64,000 nucleotides of DNA, taken from assembly GCA_003313425.1 (NCBI GenBank), contig NHZP01000014.1, positions 1,116,001-1,180,000 on the forward strand. The letters are read 5' to 3'. Numbering within the stretch: position 1 is the stretch's first letter; each line of letters begins with the position of its first letter. Below the pieces are notes generated by a model. The model was not told the DNA's origin, did not search any database, and worked only from the letters and a program-made list of their open reading frames with translations. The translations under genes and the position numbers were made by a program. This stretch comes from Pseudopyrenochaeta lycopersici (lineage: Eukaryota > Ascomycota > Dothideomycetes > Pleosporales > Pseudopyrenochaetaceae). Positions 26,083 to 40,198 of the stretch are shown here, piece after piece.

Positions 26083-26084
26083 TA
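26083..26084. repeat. Target-site duplication TA, left
   Basis: TA immediately before the terminal ACATCCC of the element; repeated at 31262-31263. TA duplication is typical of Tc1/mariner-type insertion. Confidence 0.7.
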
Positions 26085-26729
26085 ACATCCCTCACTACGT
26101 AGCGAGAACCACACCGTAGCGAGAAAACCAACAGGTACTTAGACTTCAACACATCAGAAACTCTTCCTATGTCTAGCTATCTATATTTTACTAATTAGAT
26201 AGTATAACTTAGCTATTCCTAGACATCTTAAACCCTTTTAATCTAAAAATTACGTTACGTATCGTCGCCTTTACGCCTAATTCGTAGAGAGCCTTATTCT
26301 TTAGTAAAACAGCGTTCCTTCCCTATAGCACTACTATTAAGCTCTTACTACTCTATAATGCTTATAATAGTGCTATCTAAGCCTTAGAACCTTACTATAA
26401 TACTTAGGAGTTATTACTAGCCTTATATCTGCTGTCGCACGCAAATTTATGTTAGGGTCGCTACCCTAATTAGTACCTCTAACCGGAACGATTACCAGTC
26501 CTAGCTAGTGCAAAACAGCCACATAATTATCACAGTAGCTGCTAGGCCTGTGGCGGTGTGAAGTCTTGGCAAGCGGGCCGACCTTAGCCCCGCAGCCTTG
26601 CGATCCAACTCAACCTTGGCCATGCCTCCAGTCAACCAACTCACCTCTTACAGAATTCGCCACCTCACAAGAGCCTATCCAGAGCGGGTCGACCGTCCTC
26701 CCTGCTAGCGTAATCGAGGCGTTCGTCTG
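26085..26729 (+). repeat. Left 645-bp terminal inverted repeat
   Basis: Matches 30617-31261 in reverse complement with no net length change. The outer two thirds is very rich in TA and poor in CA/TG, whereas the inner part (about 26541-26729) is GC-rich with normal CA/TG content. Differences between arms in the stretches compared were all transitions. Confidence 0.9.
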
Positions 26730-27087
26730 ATTCTCATGTTATAATCATATTTCAGTTTGGCTCCTTGCAAAAATCGCCTTCCGCTAAGGTCTGACCCCGC
26801 ATATATGCTTTTCACGCCACACTTTAGGCTTAAACTTACAAGTCTAAGGACGGCGGAACTAGGTTATAGTACTCTCGACCTGTCTTGCTTTCAGATGCGA
26901 TCCTTAGGTATAGCTCGGCGTCCCTGTTTTCCAGTATGCCACTCTAACCCCGATAGTTAGGACTAGCACCCTCAGCAGACGAGTGGGTTGCCGTGCTCGT
27001 CTCTTGACTTAGGCTGCTGCGTTTGAACCTTATATCAAAGACCTTCCATCAGCACTAACGCAAGCTTACTTCTAAAGGCCCGGTATC
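26730..27087. other. Element interior upstream of the HET gene
   Basis: About 360 bases between the left inverted repeat and the HET-gene ATG; the likely promoter of the cargo gene. No coding exon is recognised. Confidence 0.4.
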
Positions 27088-30000
27088 ATGCCGCAATATC
27101 GTTATTCTCCACTCTCGGAAAAGCCCAACATCATTCGCTTGCTTCGACTACTACCAAGCAAAGATAAACCAAAAAATTTGCGATGTAAACTTTTTGAGTA
27201 TACCATACGAGAGTCAGATATAGCAAATCATCCATACGAAGCACTATCGTATGTTTGGGGTAGTGAGGACAAACCACAGTCTATTATTATAGACGATCAA
27301 GAGTTGGCAATTACGCAAAACCTTTATATGGCCCTGTTACGTCTGCGTGATCGAGAAACTTCTCGAATTATCTGGGTGGATGCTGTTTGCATAAACCAAG
27401 AAGATGAAATGGAGAAAGGCCATCAGATCCAGCTCATGGCAGCGATCTACGCCAAAGCAAGCCACGTGATCGTTTGGCTTGGAGAAGCCCAAGATGATGG
27501 CGATCGAGCGCTTGAGTTAATACGTATTGCAGGAAAAAATTCTGCAAACTCTTTGAATAGAGAGCCATTCGATCAAGCCATTCTGCAGCTACTTAAACGA
27601 CCATGGTTTCGCCGTATCTGGGTAAGTAAAAAGTGTATAATGTTAGTAAGAGTGACTAAATGCCGTTCTAGATTCTACAAGAAGTGGCTGCAGCTCGGCA
27701 TGTTATTATCAAGTGTGGTACTGCGGAGATTGATGGACATGCCTTTTGCTTAGGTTTACAATTTTTGAAACCAACCTTGGAAGACTCCATGTGTCTAGTG
27801 ACCTCTTTAATACGAGGAGCAATATTCCGGTCTGGACATATATTAAGGAAGCAGGAGAGACTCTCGCTGGATATATGTTCTCTACGCGAGCTAGTCGATA
27901 CGTATCATGCACATAAGGCCAAGAAACTACACGACAAGGTATATGCCTTACTTGGCATGAGCTCGGATGATCTTAGCGTAACTCGCTTAAAGCCTGACTA
28001 CAATGTTGATTGGAAAGAGCTTATGCAGAATCTCGTGGAGTTCCTTATTGGTGCTCAAGCCTCTGTTAATACTTGGAACGACAAGGAGATAGCAGTTATC
28101 AGGAGCAGAGGATGTATCCTTGGCGAGGTCTCTACGGGAAAGAGCAATAGTGATTCGGTTAGTAGACAGAACGTGGAAGCCGTAATCAAAAACATGTCGC
28201 AGCAATCGGGATGTATAAGATACGGGAGCGCTCGCTGGACTCTCCAGACCTCGGCAAAACCTATCCAAAACGGAGACTTCCTCTGCCTCCTTCAAGGAGC
28301 CTCAAAGCCTTCGATCATCAGATTACGCAAGGATCATTTCGCTATCATTGTAATAGCAGCTGATCCTCCGGAGGACATACAAACCACGAGTGGAGATGTG
28401 AAATGGGTAGAACTGTTACGATCGGTAACTTTCACTCGCAATTTCCTACTTATCTGGGACTGGGAAATCTCCTCAGAAAACTTGCAAGATTTAGGAAAAT
28501 ATGATACTTTGACCCTAAGATCATTCGAAACGGAGTTGGAGGGCCAGTTGGACGATCCAACCAGAATATGGGATATTGCACTGATATTGGGAGATTTGGG
28601 AGAGTATGAAAAGGCAGAAGAGAGGCTTCGAGAAGCAATAAAAGGATATAAGAGAGCGCTTGGCGAAGAGCATCCACACACGCTGGAAAGCCAATACGGT
28701 TTGACGCCGCTATCGTTGGCCGCTAGAAACGGGTATAACAATGTAGTAAGCCAACTACTCACGAAAGATGAAGTCAATTTGGACTTGAAGGACTGGCACG
28801 GCCGAACACCGCTCTGGTGGGCCGCCAAGAGTGGGCACGAGGCCGTGGTCAAGCAGCTGCTCGCTACAGGCAAGGTCGATGTCGAGGTAAAGGACAAGGA
28901 CGATCGGACGCCGCTGTGGTGGGCGGCGGAAGGAGGCCACCTCGCCGTCGTAGAGCGGCTGCTCCAAGAGAAGGCAGAGGTCAATGCAGCAGCAGAATAT
29001 AGTGGACGAACAGCACTCCAGGCGGCGGCGGGAGGAGGCCACCTCGCCGTCGTAGAGCGGCTGCTCCAAGAGAAGGCAGAGGTCAATGCAGCAGCAGCAG
29101 GATCCAATGGACGAACAGCACTCCAGGCGGCGGCAGAAGGAGGCCACCTCGCCGTCGTAGAGCGGCTGCTCCAAGAGAAGGCAGAGGTCAATGCAGCAGC
29201 AGCAAGATCCAATGGAGGACGAACAGCACTCCAGGCGGCGGCAGGAGGAGGCCACCTCGCCGTCGTAGAGCGGCTGCTCCAAGAGAAGGCAGAGGTCAAT
29301 GCAGCAGCAGCAAGATCCAATGGACGAACAGCACTCCAGGCGGCGGCGGAAGGAGGCCAACAGCACTCCAGGCGGCGGCAGGAGGAGGCCACCTCGCCGT
29401 CGTAGAGCGGCTGCTCCAAGAGAAGGCAGAGGTCAATGCAGCAGCAGCAAGATCCAATGGAGGACGAACAGCACTCCAGGCGGCGGCAGGAGGAGGCCAC
29501 CTCGCCGTCGTAGAGCGGCTGCTCCAAGAGAAGGCAGAGGTCAATGCAGCAGCAGCAGAATTCGGAGGACGAACAGCACTCCAGGCGGCGGCGGGAGGAG
29601 GCCACCTCGCCGTCGTAGAGCGGCTGCTCCAAGAGAAGGCAGAGGTCAATGCAGCAGCAGCAAGATCCGGAGGACGAACAGCACTCCAGGCGGCGGCAGG
29701 AGGAGGCCACCTCGCCGTCGTAGAGCGGCTGCTCCAAGAGAAGGCAGAGGTCAATGCAGCAGCAGCAAGATCCGGAGGACGAACAGCACTCCAGGCGGCG
29801 GCAGGAGGAGGCCACCTCGCCGTCGTAGAGCGGCTGCTCCAAGAGAAGGCAGAGGTCAATGCAGCAGCAGCAAGATCCGGAGGACGAACAGCACTCCAGG
29901 CGGCGGCAGGAGGAGGCCACCTCGCCGTCGTAGAGCGGCTGCTCCAAGAGAAGGCAGAGGTCAATGCAGCAGCAGGATACGACCGTCCAACAGCACTCCA

Positions 30001-30172
30001 GGCGGCGGCAGGAGGAGGCCACCTCGCCGTCGTAGAGCGGCTGCTCCAAGAGAAGGCAGAGGTCAATGCAGCAGCAGCAGGATTCGGAGGACGAACAGCA
30101 CTCCAGGCGGCGGCGGAAGGAGGCCACCTCGCCGTCGTAGAATGCCTTCGTCACGCAGGTGCTATAAAATAA
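27088..30172 (+). CDS. HET-domain protein with TPR-like segment and ankyrin array, frameshifted
   Basis: Exons 27088-27621 and 27672-29405 give 755 residues before a stop. The N-terminal HET domain, linked in fungi to heterokaryon incompatibility and programmed cell death, is clear: YEALSYVWGSEDK, IIWVDAVCINQED, IYAKASHVIVWLGEA and RPWFRRIW/ILQEVAAARH across the splice. A TPR-like segment (GDLGEYEKAEERLREAI, residues about 490-520) precedes ankyrin repeats that start GLTPLSLAARNGYNNVV. From 28900 the repeats become nearly identical. At about 29358 part of one unit is lost and the frame shifts, reading QQHSRRRQEE before TAG at 29403-29405. The ankyrin frame stays open beyond this, through HLAVVERLLQEKAEV units, to TAA at 30170-30172. 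The gene is the cargo of the TIR element. Confidence 0.8.
28900..30155 (+). repeat. Minisatellite-like ankyrin array, about 102-bp unit, twelve near-identical copies plus a truncated one
   Basis: The core GGCCACCTCGCCGTCGTAGA recurs near 28936, 29036, 29141, 29248, 29387, 29497, 29600, 29706, 29808, 29911, 30017 and 30121. Spacing varies around 102 bases (34 codons) because of one- or two-codon differences in the linker after the AAA run. A truncated unit lies at about 29340-29360. Copies differ at very few bases, mainly in the linker, which implies recent expansion or ongoing homogenisation. Confidence 0.9.
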
Positions 30173-30616
30173 TACTGCTGCATTCTTGTATATCCGCAAA
30201 TTTCTTAGCGATTGAAATACTAGCGGCTAGAAAGGTTGTAATTTCTAGAAGCTGATGCTTAAGCTCTAGTAGCTTTCTATATAACTAATTGTTTCTTTAA
30301 TCTCTATTTTATAGAGGGTCAAGAGGAGAATGTATGCCGGATTTAAAAGGACTCTGGGAAATAATGGATGGGGTATGGATATGCAAAGTTGAGCTTAACG
30401 AGCTTAACACATTCTAAGTCTAGAGCATCTATATCATGATTACTTACTATACTATATTTATTATTCTCTCTATTTCATAGAGGACTGGGGATCAGCATAA
30501 ACATATAGCTAGCCAATTTGCCACAGCGAAGCTTCGAGCATACTCTAGATCAAGTGACAAGATATCCACGTGCGGAATTACGTGTTAAATGTTTGCCACT
30601 TGAGTCTGGCCGGGAA
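30173..30616. other. Element interior downstream of the HET gene
   Basis: About 440 AT-rich bases between the cargo gene's final stop and the right inverted repeat. No gene is recognised. Confidence 0.4.
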
Positions 30617-31261
30617 CAGACGAACGCCTTGATCACACTAGCAGGGAGGACGGTCGACCCGCTCTGGATAGGCTCTTGTGAGGTGGCGAATTCTGTAAGA
30701 GGTGAGTTGGTTGACTGGAGGCATGGCCAAGGTTGAGTTGGATCGCAAGGCTGCGGGGCTAAGGTCGGCCCGCTTGCCAAGACTTCACACCGCCACAGGC
30801 CTAGCAGCCACTGTGATAATTATGTGGCTGTTTTGCACTAGCTAGGACTAGTAATCGTTCTAGTTAGAGGTACTAATTAGGGTGGCAACCCTAACATAAA
30901 TTTACGTGCGACAGCAGATATAAGGCTAGTAATAACTCCTAAGTATCGTAGTAAGGTTCTAAGACTTAGATAGCACTATTATAAGCATTATAGAGTAGTA
31001 AGAGCTTAATAGTAGTGCTATAGGGAAGGAACGCTGTTTTACTAAAGAATAAGGCTCTCTACAAATTAGGCGCGAAGGCGACGATGCGTAACGTAATTTT
31101 TAGATTAAAGGGGTTTAAGATGTCTAGGAATAGCTAAGTTATACTATCTAATTAGTAAAATATAGATAGCTAGACATAGGAAGAGTTTCTGATGTGTTGA
31201 AGTCTAAGTACCTGTTGGTTTTCTCGCTACGGTGTGGTTCTCGCTACGTAGTGGGGGATGT
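30617..31261 (-). repeat. Right 645-bp terminal inverted repeat
   Basis: Reverse complement of 26085-26729, again 645 bases. Ends in GATGT, which is ACATC in reverse, followed by TA. Short open frames in its GC-rich inner part are not recognised as a transposase. Confidence 0.9.
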
Positions 31262-31263
31262 TA
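31262..31263. repeat. Target-site duplication TA, right
   Basis: Second copy of the TA found at 26083-26084. The interrupted gene resumes in frame at 31264. Confidence 0.7.
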
Positions 31264-37494: not shown

Positions 37495-40198
37495 CTAAAT
37501 TTTCATCTTTTTCTTATATACTCTGATGCCATCAAGTATCAAGTATGAATTTAGACACGGCTCACAAAGATGCTTCAGCCACTCCGTATAGATGCCAGAA
37601 GGAAAATTGGCAAGGAAAGCGTCAACAACGTAGTCGTACTTGTGTGCTTTTGCAATTTCGCAGAGACTAGTATTTTCAATCATTGGTTCAAGAACCACAA
37701 TATTTTCGCGGACAAAAGCACTTATCCAGTATGATTTTGATTTCAGTGTTCGATGCGATACAGCTTGGGAGATATAGCCGAGTTGAACCGAATCTGTATC
37801 ATAATCTGGGTTGTCGACCAACTCCGCTTTTTGCAGGTTTACCAGGACAGCCGCAGCGAGGATGTTATAGATCAGTTGAACATCTCCAAAGCACTTTCTG
37901 AGTAAGAAGGACAGGGCTTGTGGTGCCTCTGGTCGCGACGCAATAGCTTTCAGCGTTTCTTTAGAAAGCGGCGGGATACCACCGGTTTCCTCGGATATCA
38001 AAACCAGACTTGGAAAGATGTTGTACTCATGTGAAGCCCCATTGAGTTCAATTGAGTAATTGGAGCGCTTGTTTGAAGGGTGCGTATGCGATCCGTAGGG
38101 CCAGAGGTGTTTCTGAGCGAGCATGTATCTGAGTATGAACCTGTCATTCCAGTGTTGTGTATTGTCGCTCACCGCCCCATTAGAAGTTACTTTAAAGTCG
38201 GGGACAACTGCGATGAGGAATTCCTTGAGCTCAGGGTGCCCAATGAGAGAACTCACTACTTTAGATTCGGAAGCTGCTGTCATCACTGGCTTCGGATGGG
38301 AACCAAGTAGCGCCGCAATTCGTAATACATCGTGGGGCATAGGGCCTTCGCTTTTCCAAAAATCTGCAACGCGAGTGACGACTTGGCCTCGTTGCGGTAG
38401 AGATGTTTCGAGGGTCCAGATACACCATCTCAAGTCTTCAATGCGACTCTTCAACCACGTGTAGGAATCCCAATATTTGCGGATGAGGTGAAGAAGATGT
38501 AAATGTTGTTGTAGCTCTGGATCAAGTGGAGAAACAAAGTCCTGTGGCAGCAGCACTTGGAGATTCTCTCGATCGCGAAGATCATCGAAAATTCGTCCGC
38601 AAGCCCTAACCCGTGACAAGTATGAAACATGACCAGAGTTGGATCCTGAATCAACCTCTATTAACAAGCGATGGTCATCCGAACTTTGATGAGCCATTGG
38701 CAGCCAATCCCAAACCAGGACAATCTGCCGGTCATCATTTTGCATTGCACTCAGAAAAGTCCCCCAGTCAATAATGGAGCATTCTGAGCCAATATTCACT
38801 TCCACCTTTTGTAGATTCACAGAAATCATGATGATGTCAAAATGGTCTCTGCAAAATCGAATAATGCTGGGAAACGCAGCCCCTTTCATCTGCCACAAGA
38901 TGTCACCAGGACTGATAATCTTACAATAAGTATTAGGTTTCCGAGGCAGTTTGCAGCTGCTCTGAAGCCCATGCGGCCCCGAAAAGTGTTGTCCCTGAAT
39001 GGTAAACGTTTCGGAATTCATCTCGGTCACGACACCGAGAGCATGTCCGTAACCTGTGATAGCCGCACGCTCTTGTTCATCACATGTTGTTACTAAGACC
39101 GAAGACCCAAGGAGGTATTTGATCAGAGCTTCAAAGACCATCGACCAACTTTTCTTGTAGTCAGGTTGCAAAGGAGGATCAAGATAGTCAGATGCACGAT
39201 TCATTCCGAGCAAGGCGAAAACCTTGTCACGTCGATCGCTGGCTTCGTGGAGGTGAAATGATTCCAGAAGCTCGCCCAGTGGCAAGACACCAAGAGTGCC
39301 TGATAAGTTGTCGGGATGAGCCTGAGAAGGGAAGGATTCATGTTTCAAAGAACAGCCCTCCCACGACATCATGTCCAGTACCGAAGAGCTTAATGAGCGC
39401 AACTCGGAATTGGCCATATATCGTGCCAAGAGATGCTTCGTTCCACGAGTAAAGGCCGATCCGGTGATTTCTGCCTCGCCACATATGACTGCGAGGTGTT
39501 TTGCTGCTGCAGCTTCTTGTAAAACCTGGTCATACACTTAGTCTGACAGTTGAATTAGGGAGATGAGCTAGTTAACAAACCCAAACTCGGCGAAACCAGG
39601 AACGCCCCAACAAGGCGATGAGTGAGTCCACTAAGAGTTCTTCACCAGCATTGCCAATCCATCTGCGGAAACCAGTCCAGGTCATGCCACCGGTGGTGTC
39701 TTCACGGGATCGCATAAGGTTGGTTGCCACATTCTCTATGCTGGCCAAGACTTCCGTGCTGCCATCGGCCTCTCCACCCAGCCAGATGACGACACGACTC
39801 GCATGCGAATAGATTGTTGCCATGAATTGTACTTGACTTCCACGCTCCTCAAGAGTTGTTTGATCAATGCAGACGGCATCGACCCACACAATGCGCGGGA
39901 AAAAAGGGTCACGAAGACGGCGGAGCGCAAGCTGAAGATTTGCTGTGACGTCCAAGTAGCAGAATTCATCAGCACAAGGGCTGAACCCATTGGAATCCTG
40001 CACGTATATCTTTTCTCGCTCGTCGGCATTTCCCCACACGTACGACAGCGCCTCGTAAAGCGCAAGCCCTCGCGTCTGCTGGATAGTATAGTCGAGGATC
40101 TGGCAAAACACGTCCTCTCCATCAGTGCCTGGCAAGATACGTAACAAGCGTATGCTGTTCAGTTCAGCCTGAAGTGGTCGGTAGACGTAGCGTTCCAT
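37495..40198 (-). CDS. HET-domain protein with an unrecognised C-terminal region
   Basis: Two exons, 40198-39581 and 39525-37495, give 882 residues. The HET domain is clear: LYEALSYVWGNADE, IVWVDAVCIDQTTLEERG, SHASRVVIWLGGE and RSWFRRVW/VLQEAAAAKH across the splice. After RRDKVFALLGM and a CDEQERAAITGYGHALG motif, as in other HET proteins, the last 450 residues are mostly helical and show no ankyrin, WD40 or NACHT signature. They may be a diverged ankyrin-like solenoid (DVLRIAALLGSHPKPVMTAA, SLCEIAKAHKYDYVVDAFL). The intron position is the same as in the HET gene inside the TIR element. HET proteins trigger incompatibility or cell death; the partner is unknown. Confidence 0.85.

What the first reader, a model, noticed from the sequence alone, without database searches (positions are those of the whole stretch)
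26085..31261. A TIR element with long arms carries a HET-domain/ankyrin gene as cargo
Two 645-bp inverted arms of identical length, both starting ACATCCC and flanked by TA, enclose a HET-ankyrin gene and no visible transposase. HET genes are self/non-self recognition genes that evolve quickly. A mobile, apparently non-autonomous Tc1/mariner-like unit that moves one would be a direct way to spread or reshuffle incompatibility genes. I know of no described element of this form, though absence from memory is weak evidence.
Basis: partly seen in the sequence, partly recalled or inferred. Interest (0 to 1): 0.9.

Follow-up and report, generated by a model that had tools for sequence, protein, structure and literature searches.

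The report
Jumping DNA frames carrying self-recognition genes
In a genome matching a tomato-root fungus, genes of the kinds used to tell self from non-self (HET) or to sense invaders (NACHT) sit inside transposon-like DNA units with long mirrored ends, one of these units interrupts a sequence found uninterrupted at six other places, and one gene block recurs almost unchanged at two places with different surroundings; an enzyme encoded by a related element likely moves the units, which would give the fungus a way to spread and reshuffle such genes.

Summary
In detail: two 645-bp arms, 97% complementary and flanked by TA, enclose a HET-TPR-ankyrin gene. It is not a one-off. The arm has 45 matches in this genome, many in inverted pairs; the TA-plus-outer-end pattern has 38 hits (reversed control 0). 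Seven of ten two-ended units carry HET genes. The joined flanks of one HET unit (C43) match six empty sites end to end, gapless with a single TA in the one read. A 6.6-kb relative with the same ends carries an open DDE_1 (DD35D) pogo/Fot1-type transposase, the likely mover. Beyond the finding: arms end inside in a 29-bp module (110 copies, control 0). Among the 100 listed, neighbours form 25 convergent pairs, 7 divergent, none co-oriented; 15 of 25 enclose HET or NACHT (shifted control mean 0.7, maximum 5). One 2,856-bp HET block is near-identical at two loci with different outer flanks; two loci share 99.4% identical arms but differ just inside the module. So HET/NLR cassettes appear to swap among TIR frames. 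The genome matches Pyrenochaeta lycopersici ER1518; its paper reports HET expansion and HET-repeat proximity, but in the parts I read no such element. Trans-mobilisation, the swap mechanism and biological effect are inferred. The window copy itself has no detected empty site.

The parts
26083..31263 (.). Whole unit with the flanking TA on each side
26083..26084 (.). Left TA (presumed target-site duplication)
26085..26729 (+). Left arm, 645 nt, outer end ACATCCC
26682..26710 (+). Left inner module, 29 nt, 0 mismatches to the module pattern
   Evidence: C14:1142682-1142710
26684..30679 (+). Cassette: stretch shared with the arm-less copy on C25 (with insertions in that copy)
27088..27621 (+). 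HET gene exon 1 (HET domain PF06985, 2.7e-35); exon ends judged from frame and splice letters
27622..27671 (+). Predicted 50-nt intron (GTAAGT...TAG)
   Evidence: reading of the sequence
27672..29405 (+). HET gene exon 2: TPR then ankyrin repeats; stops where the frame breaks in the array
28881..30172 (+). Array of near-identical ~105-nt ankyrin repeat units, partly in another frame
30636..30664 (-). Right inner module, 29 nt, 1 mismatch
   Evidence: C14:1146636-1146664
30617..31261 (-). Right arm, 645 nt, 97% complementary to the left arm
31262..31263 (.). Right TA (presumed target-site duplication)

Best explanation
This is one copy of a family of long-armed, TA-flanked DNA elements without a transposase of their own that carry HET and NACHT-type recognition genes and are likely moved in trans by a pogo/Fot1-type transposase encoded by a related element with the same ends. 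Each unit has two layers. The outer frame (arms of about 590 to over 1,000 bp) carries the TA-flanked ends that the transposase would cut. The inner cassette is bounded by an inverted 29-bp module and holds the gene. Cassettes and frames occur in different combinations at different loci, likely through recombination at or next to the inner module, so a recognition gene could be handed to a frame that is still mobile. Shown: the family; TA at its ends; six empty sites for one HET-bearing unit; HET/NACHT enrichment between modules; one cassette with different outer flanks; one frame type around different interiors; a transposase gene between the same ends. Inferred: movement in trans, the swap mechanism, any effect on incompatibility.
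For: 45 arm matches, many in inverted pairs; 38 hits of TA plus outer end, reversed control 0; 24 of 24 ends that begin ACATCCC follow TA, of 27 ends printed; six places match the joined C43 flanks end to end, 156 of 157 bases gapless with one TA in the one read; for the transposase carrier, seven places at 96-99% match its left flank and run 12-15 bases across its junction, 93 of 94 gapless in the one read; HET in 7 of 10 two-ended units; 6 listed HET places in 82.9 kb where 0.198 are expected, 0 of 20,000 same-contig placements reach 6; 15 of 25 module pairs hold a listed HET or NACHT, shifted control mean 0.72, maximum 5; same outer ends around an open DDE_1 ORF with DD35D spacing; C54/C1 cassette near-identical over 2,856 bp with different outer flanks; C51 arms identical over 1,085 bp, C37 left arm 99.4% identical to them, interiors different after the module.
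Against: No transposition was observed. The HET units have 590-1,000-bp arms while the transposase carrier has a 44-bp TIR and shares only the outer 43-65 bp. A 99% copy of that transposase (L052) lacks these ends. At least 150 DDE_1 places exist, so another transposase could act. The window copy and six other elements gave no empty site. 10 of 25 module pairs hold neither a listed HET nor NACHT. Several units are one-sided or composite (C34, C25, C54b, C54c, C68).
Confidence: 0.8

Rival explanations
1. The inner cassette is itself the moving transposon, with its own short inverted ends (CACAA, a short variable stretch, then the module). The outer arms belong to a second element family around it.
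For: Modules come as inverted pairs. The C25 copy has both modules and no outer arms. C54c and C54b have a module border next to non-arm sequence on the left. The variable stretch goes with the cassette.
Against: I saw no direct target duplication beside the arm-less borders, no second transposase tied to the modules, and whole TA-flanked units with arms are what the C43 empty sites show inserted.
Confidence: 0.25
2. The units are ordinary TIR elements, but another TA-specific transposase, not the L051 type, moves them; the L051 element only resembles them at the ends.
For: At least 150 DDE_1 places in the genome; a 99% copy of the L051 transposase lies between other sequences; TIR lengths differ.
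Against: L051 carries the same end sequence on both sides, and its own flanks also have partial empty-site matches with one TA; one related transposase (C5:1928110, 66%) also has an ACATCCC end (23 of 25) about 630 bp upstream.
Confidence: 0.2
3. The arrangement is not mobile: a host HET gene happens to lie between two oppositely oriented repeats or in an inverted duplication.
For: C42 is a 3.4-kb palindrome that includes its flanks; HET genes are very numerous here; the window copy has no detected empty site.
Against: 24 of 24 ends beginning ACATCCC follow TA, six empty sites for C43, strictly inverted pairing of module neighbours, enrichment above local and random controls.
Confidence: 0.05

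Closest known systems
pogo/Fot1-type elements of the Tc1/mariner superfamily
   Same: TA at the ends; a relative with the same ends carries a DDE_1 transposase with DD35D spacing
   Different: Arms of 590 to over 1,000 bp against a 44-bp TIR in the carrier; no transposase inside; HET/NACHT cargo; inner module and cassette exchange
Pack-TYPE / Pack-MULE elements (plants; listing and abstract start only)
   Same: Non-autonomous TIR elements that carry host-type genes
   Different: Cargo is not general: HET/NACHT in 15 of 25 module pairs; whole multi-domain genes; a defined inner module; pogo-type ends
Starships (fungal giant cargo elements; listings and abstract starts only)
   Same: Fungal mobile elements with cargo genes
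   Different: 4-20 kb, TIR and TA ends; no tyrosine-recombinase family among 30 ORFs scanned
HET genes near repeats in P. lycopersici ER1518 (PMC6034849; abstract, passages, sections 13 and 16 read)
   Same: Very probably the same genome (188 unitigs, 62.7 Mb); 231 HET modules; 42 HET genes near repeats
   Different: Those parts speak of proximity; no TIR element carrying HET genes and no cassette exchange is described there

Membership tests
Tc1/mariner, pogo/Fot1 group | TA target-site duplication | tested here: met
   24 of 24 ends beginning ACATCCC follow TA, of 27 ends printed; single TA at the C43 empty site read
Tc1/mariner, pogo/Fot1 group | DDE/D transposase of the family between the ends | tested here: inconclusive
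   Absent from the HET units; present in one relative with the same ends (DDE_1 1.1e-30, spacing 35)
Tc1/mariner, pogo/Fot1 group | Short terminal inverted repeats | tested here: not met
   645-bp arms here and over 1,000 bp in C51; the transposase carrier has 44 bp. So I call it moved-like, not a typical member
Tc1/mariner, pogo/Fot1 group | Cut-and-paste movement by that transposase | not testable with these tools
   needs an assay or isolate comparison
Pack-TYPE elements | Cargo copied from a host gene that exists outside the element | tested here: inconclusive
   C25 copy 97-98% identical, without arms but still between two inner modules
Starship | Tyrosine-recombinase captain gene (recalled feature) | tested here: not met
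   No such family listed for 30 ORFs from these loci, two of them from the window unit
HET (PF06985) proteins | HET domain above the curated cut-off | tested here: met
   122.3 bits against 22.5

The most novel reading that the evidence does not exclude
A two-layer mobile repertoire of recognition genes in a eukaryote: HET and NLR cassettes with conserved inverted end modules are exchanged among several interchangeable families of pogo-type TIR frames, so that this fungus reshuffles its self/non-self receptors by transposition and cassette swapping, in place of sexual recombination.
Probability: 0.5. Interest if true: 0.92.

Novelty: new variant of a known kind. Interest (0 to 1): 0.85.

Why it matters
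How fungi keep and diversify large sets of HET and NLR genes, above all where sex is rare, is an open question. The paper on what is very probably this genome suggested an alternative to sexual reassortment (PMC6034849, abstract) and, in the parts I read, named no element. A transposon family that packages such genes, with near-identical cassettes in different surroundings, would be a concrete mechanism that resequencing of isolates can test directly.

Tried and rejected
C68 (884-aa ORF) looked like an autonomous copy, but its transposase is hAT (Dimer_Tnp_hAT), so probably nested. PF01359 rang in no genome, controls included: uninformative. C42 is a palindrome with its flanks: its two ends are not independent; it stays in the counts. 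C34-left, C25-right and C42 share a flank over at least 396 identical bases, so they are not independent insertions either. C34 (20 kb) is probably composite (MULE-type ORF). RIP as the cause of arm divergence: all 19 arm differences are transitions, but the neighbouring-base context is mixed; undecided. First I took the joined-flank search as showing empty sites for C43 alone; on checking, the transposase carrier also has partial ones.

Limits of the counts: HET list 150 scored of 520 candidates; NACHT 86 hits, 87 scored of 146; modules 100 listed of 110; joined flanks 40 scored of 301; arm search 40 scored of 102. The shifted control may run past contig ends. Rows kept out of the TA count: right end of C68 and both ends of the diverged C14 pair (its left end, ACGTCCC, does follow TA).

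Print searches: (open-licence PMC only; one search failed). None of the titles or abstract starts listed showed a HET-carrying TIR element; apart from PMC6034849 I saw only listings. That Fot1 is DD35D and that Starships use a tyrosine recombinase is recalled.
Full report
OBSERVATION. The window holds two arms, 26085-26729 and 30617-31261, 645 nt each and 97% complementary, with TA outside both. It is the only inverted repeat in the 64 kb at E<=1e-4. The interior encodes a two-exon HET protein with TPR and ankyrin repeats (HET 2.7e-35; Ank_2 6.8e-58). The frame breaks within the repeat array. No transposase ORF is seen between the arms.

GENOME. The window is C14:1116001-1180000 of an assembly of 62,731,430 bases in 188 contigs. 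For a neighbouring S28 peptidase the nearest named hit is Cucurbitaria berberidis (85%); an unnamed metagenome protein is at 96%. Size, contig number and largest contig fit P. lycopersici ER1518 (62,731,747 bp, 188 unitigs, largest 2,540 kb; PMC6034849, passages; C1 has 2,540,042 bp). Of that paper I read the abstract, passages and sections 13 and 16. It reports 231 HET modules, expanded NACHT, NB-ARC, ANK and TPR domains, and 42 HET genes near repeats. The parts read do not describe an element that carries them.

FAMILY. The arm has 45 matches (40 of 102 candidates scored). The 28-nt pattern TA plus outer end has 38 hits at up to 3 mismatches and none when read backwards. Of 27 ends printed, 24 begin ACATCCC and all 24 follow TA; the rest are the right end of C68 and both ends of a diverged C14 pair, whose left end also follows TA. 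Ten units have both outer ends: window, C46, C54a, C13, C34, C42, C43, C5a, C5b and C54:160470. HET is found in seven: window, C46, C54a, C13, C43, C5a, C5b; C46 holds two. The other three are C42 (C2H2-ankyrin), C34 (ankyrin, TPR and MULE-type ORFs) and the transposase carrier. Two diverged arm pairs hold HET as well: C14:185264-192154 (HET, NB-ARC, TPR) and C45 (HET, NPHP3_N, ankyrin).

EMPTY SITES. I joined 80-base flanks of nine elements, keeping one TA, and searched the genome (40 of 301 candidates scored). The C43 junction is matched end to end at six places (98, 98, 92, 91, 91 and 84%). In the one I read (C88), 156 of 157 bases agree without a gap, with a single TA. So C43, arms and HET gene together, is an insertion. 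For the transposase carrier, seven places at 96-99% match the left flank and continue 12-15 bases across the junction; in the one I read (C37), 93 of 94 bases agree without a gap and then the sequences part. The other seven elements, the window among them, gave no match across the junction.

ENRICHMENT. With the 150 listed HET places, the ten frames (82.9 kb) hold 6 where 0.198 are expected; 20,000 random placements on the same contigs gave a mean of 0.42 and at most 5. As a control, 55 pogo-type transposase places of other lineages (37% identity or less) have a listed HET within a 6-kb window in 0 cases and a NACHT in 1.

TRANSPOSASE. C54:160470-167065 (in L051) has the same ends: 44-bp TIR at 95%, and 65 and 43 bp matching the window arm at 89 and 91%. 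It holds an open 649-aa DDE_1 ORF (1.1e-30) with acidic residues spaced 110 and 35. By identity its relatives fall into a group at 47% or more and the rest at 37% or less, apart from fragments; I built no tree. I read beside seven relatives (L052-L058). One (L056, 66% piece) has an ACATCCC end (23 of 25 bases) about 630 bp upstream. L055 and L058 have TAACGTACATCCC-type sequences upstream (17 of 25), L052 one downstream (18 of 25). L053, L054 and L057 gave 14-15 of 25, which is near the chance best. L052, a 99% transposase copy, lacks the L051 ends. Movement in trans is therefore inferred from shared ends, not shown.

MODULES. Aligned arms end inside with CACAA, a short variable stretch and a conserved module. 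Among the seven elements with both arms in the alignment, the variable stretch is the same in both arms of six and differs by one base in C54a, although the C43 arms are only 87% alike. C54b and the C25 copy have different stretches at their two borders. The module has 110 hits at up to 3 mismatches and none when read backwards. Of the 100 listed, neighbours within 15 kb form 25 convergent pairs, 7 divergent and none in the same orientation. Nine pairs hold a listed HET and six others a NACHT, 15 of 25; expected are 0.31 and 0.18, and shifting the pairs by 15-60 kb gives a mean of 0.72 and at most 5. Ten pairs hold neither in these lists; their content was mostly not read.

SWAPS. (a) C54:236301-239156 and C1:1808903-1811758 agree at 100% as rounded by the search over 2,856 bp; there is at least one mismatch, near the right border. 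On C54 the left border is unrelated sequence then CACAA; the right border lies in a stretch of about 16 nt common to both flanks. Outside it the right flanks differ: an ACATCCC arm on C54, a sequence starting TAAGGTCC on C1. I did not read C1's left flank. (b) The C51 arms are identical to each other over 1,085 bp; the C37 left arm is 99.4% identical to them up to the module, and the 52 bases after it differ. C51 holds a listed HET, C37 neither HET nor NACHT in the lists. (c) The window cassette is 97-98% identical to a C25 copy that keeps the inner 46-63 bp of both arms (the right module with a one-base gap) but shows no outer arm. In the part compared these two differ by 10 silent and 16 amino-acid-changing codons, with no stop in the C25 copy; non-coding sites differ at 18 of 453. 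(d) C43 has arms of two subfamilies: its right arm is 94%, its left 83% like the C54c arm. So frames and cassettes occur in different combinations. Whether homologous recombination, template switching or an inner transposon causes this is open.

RELATIVES. The HET protein's nearest relatives are 91% (a metagenome contig) and 88% (Phaeosphaeriaceae sp.). Their surroundings could not be read, so spread beyond this genome is unknown.

VERDICT. A specialist would be surprised that most of the module pairs tested carry HET or NACHT genes and that near-identical cassettes sit in different surroundings. It stays a variant of known kinds (TIR transposons with cargo), hence the novelty grade.

Noticed in passing
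window 37498-40057 (-): A second HET gene in the window (HET at 39575-40057, long ORF at 37498-39537), outside the unit; no inverted repeat found around it.
   Followed up: partly
L039 (C42:357903-367399): A 3.4-kb palindrome (99.94%) that includes the frame, a C2H2-ankyrin gene between, and at least 900 identical bases outside each end; real inverted duplication or assembly effect.
   Followed up: partly
L051 and L052: A 5.7-kb stretch with transposase and other ORFs (C2H2 zinc finger) is shared at 98.8% but lies between different outer sequences, as if the interior of the transposase carrier is exchanged as well.
   Followed up: no
G000 C57:77000 and 80544; C66:185103 and 180702: A further end type (TAATATCCC) lies 3.5-4 kb from NACHT places of equal score and ORF length on two contigs: possibly two copies of one NLR-bearing unit.
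   Followed up: no
L031/L032 (C46:88916-100077): One 11.2-kb unit carries two different HET genes, one nearer each arm, like a fused double cassette.
   Followed up: partly
L043/L044 (C68:49606-60912): A unit with an intact left end, degenerate right end, and an 884-aa hAT-type transposase ORF inside, probably a nested element.
   Followed up: no
window 28881-30172: Ankyrin units of about 105 nt are near-identical to each other, and the frame breaks within the array; the C25 copy's ORF also ends in the array.
   Followed up: partly
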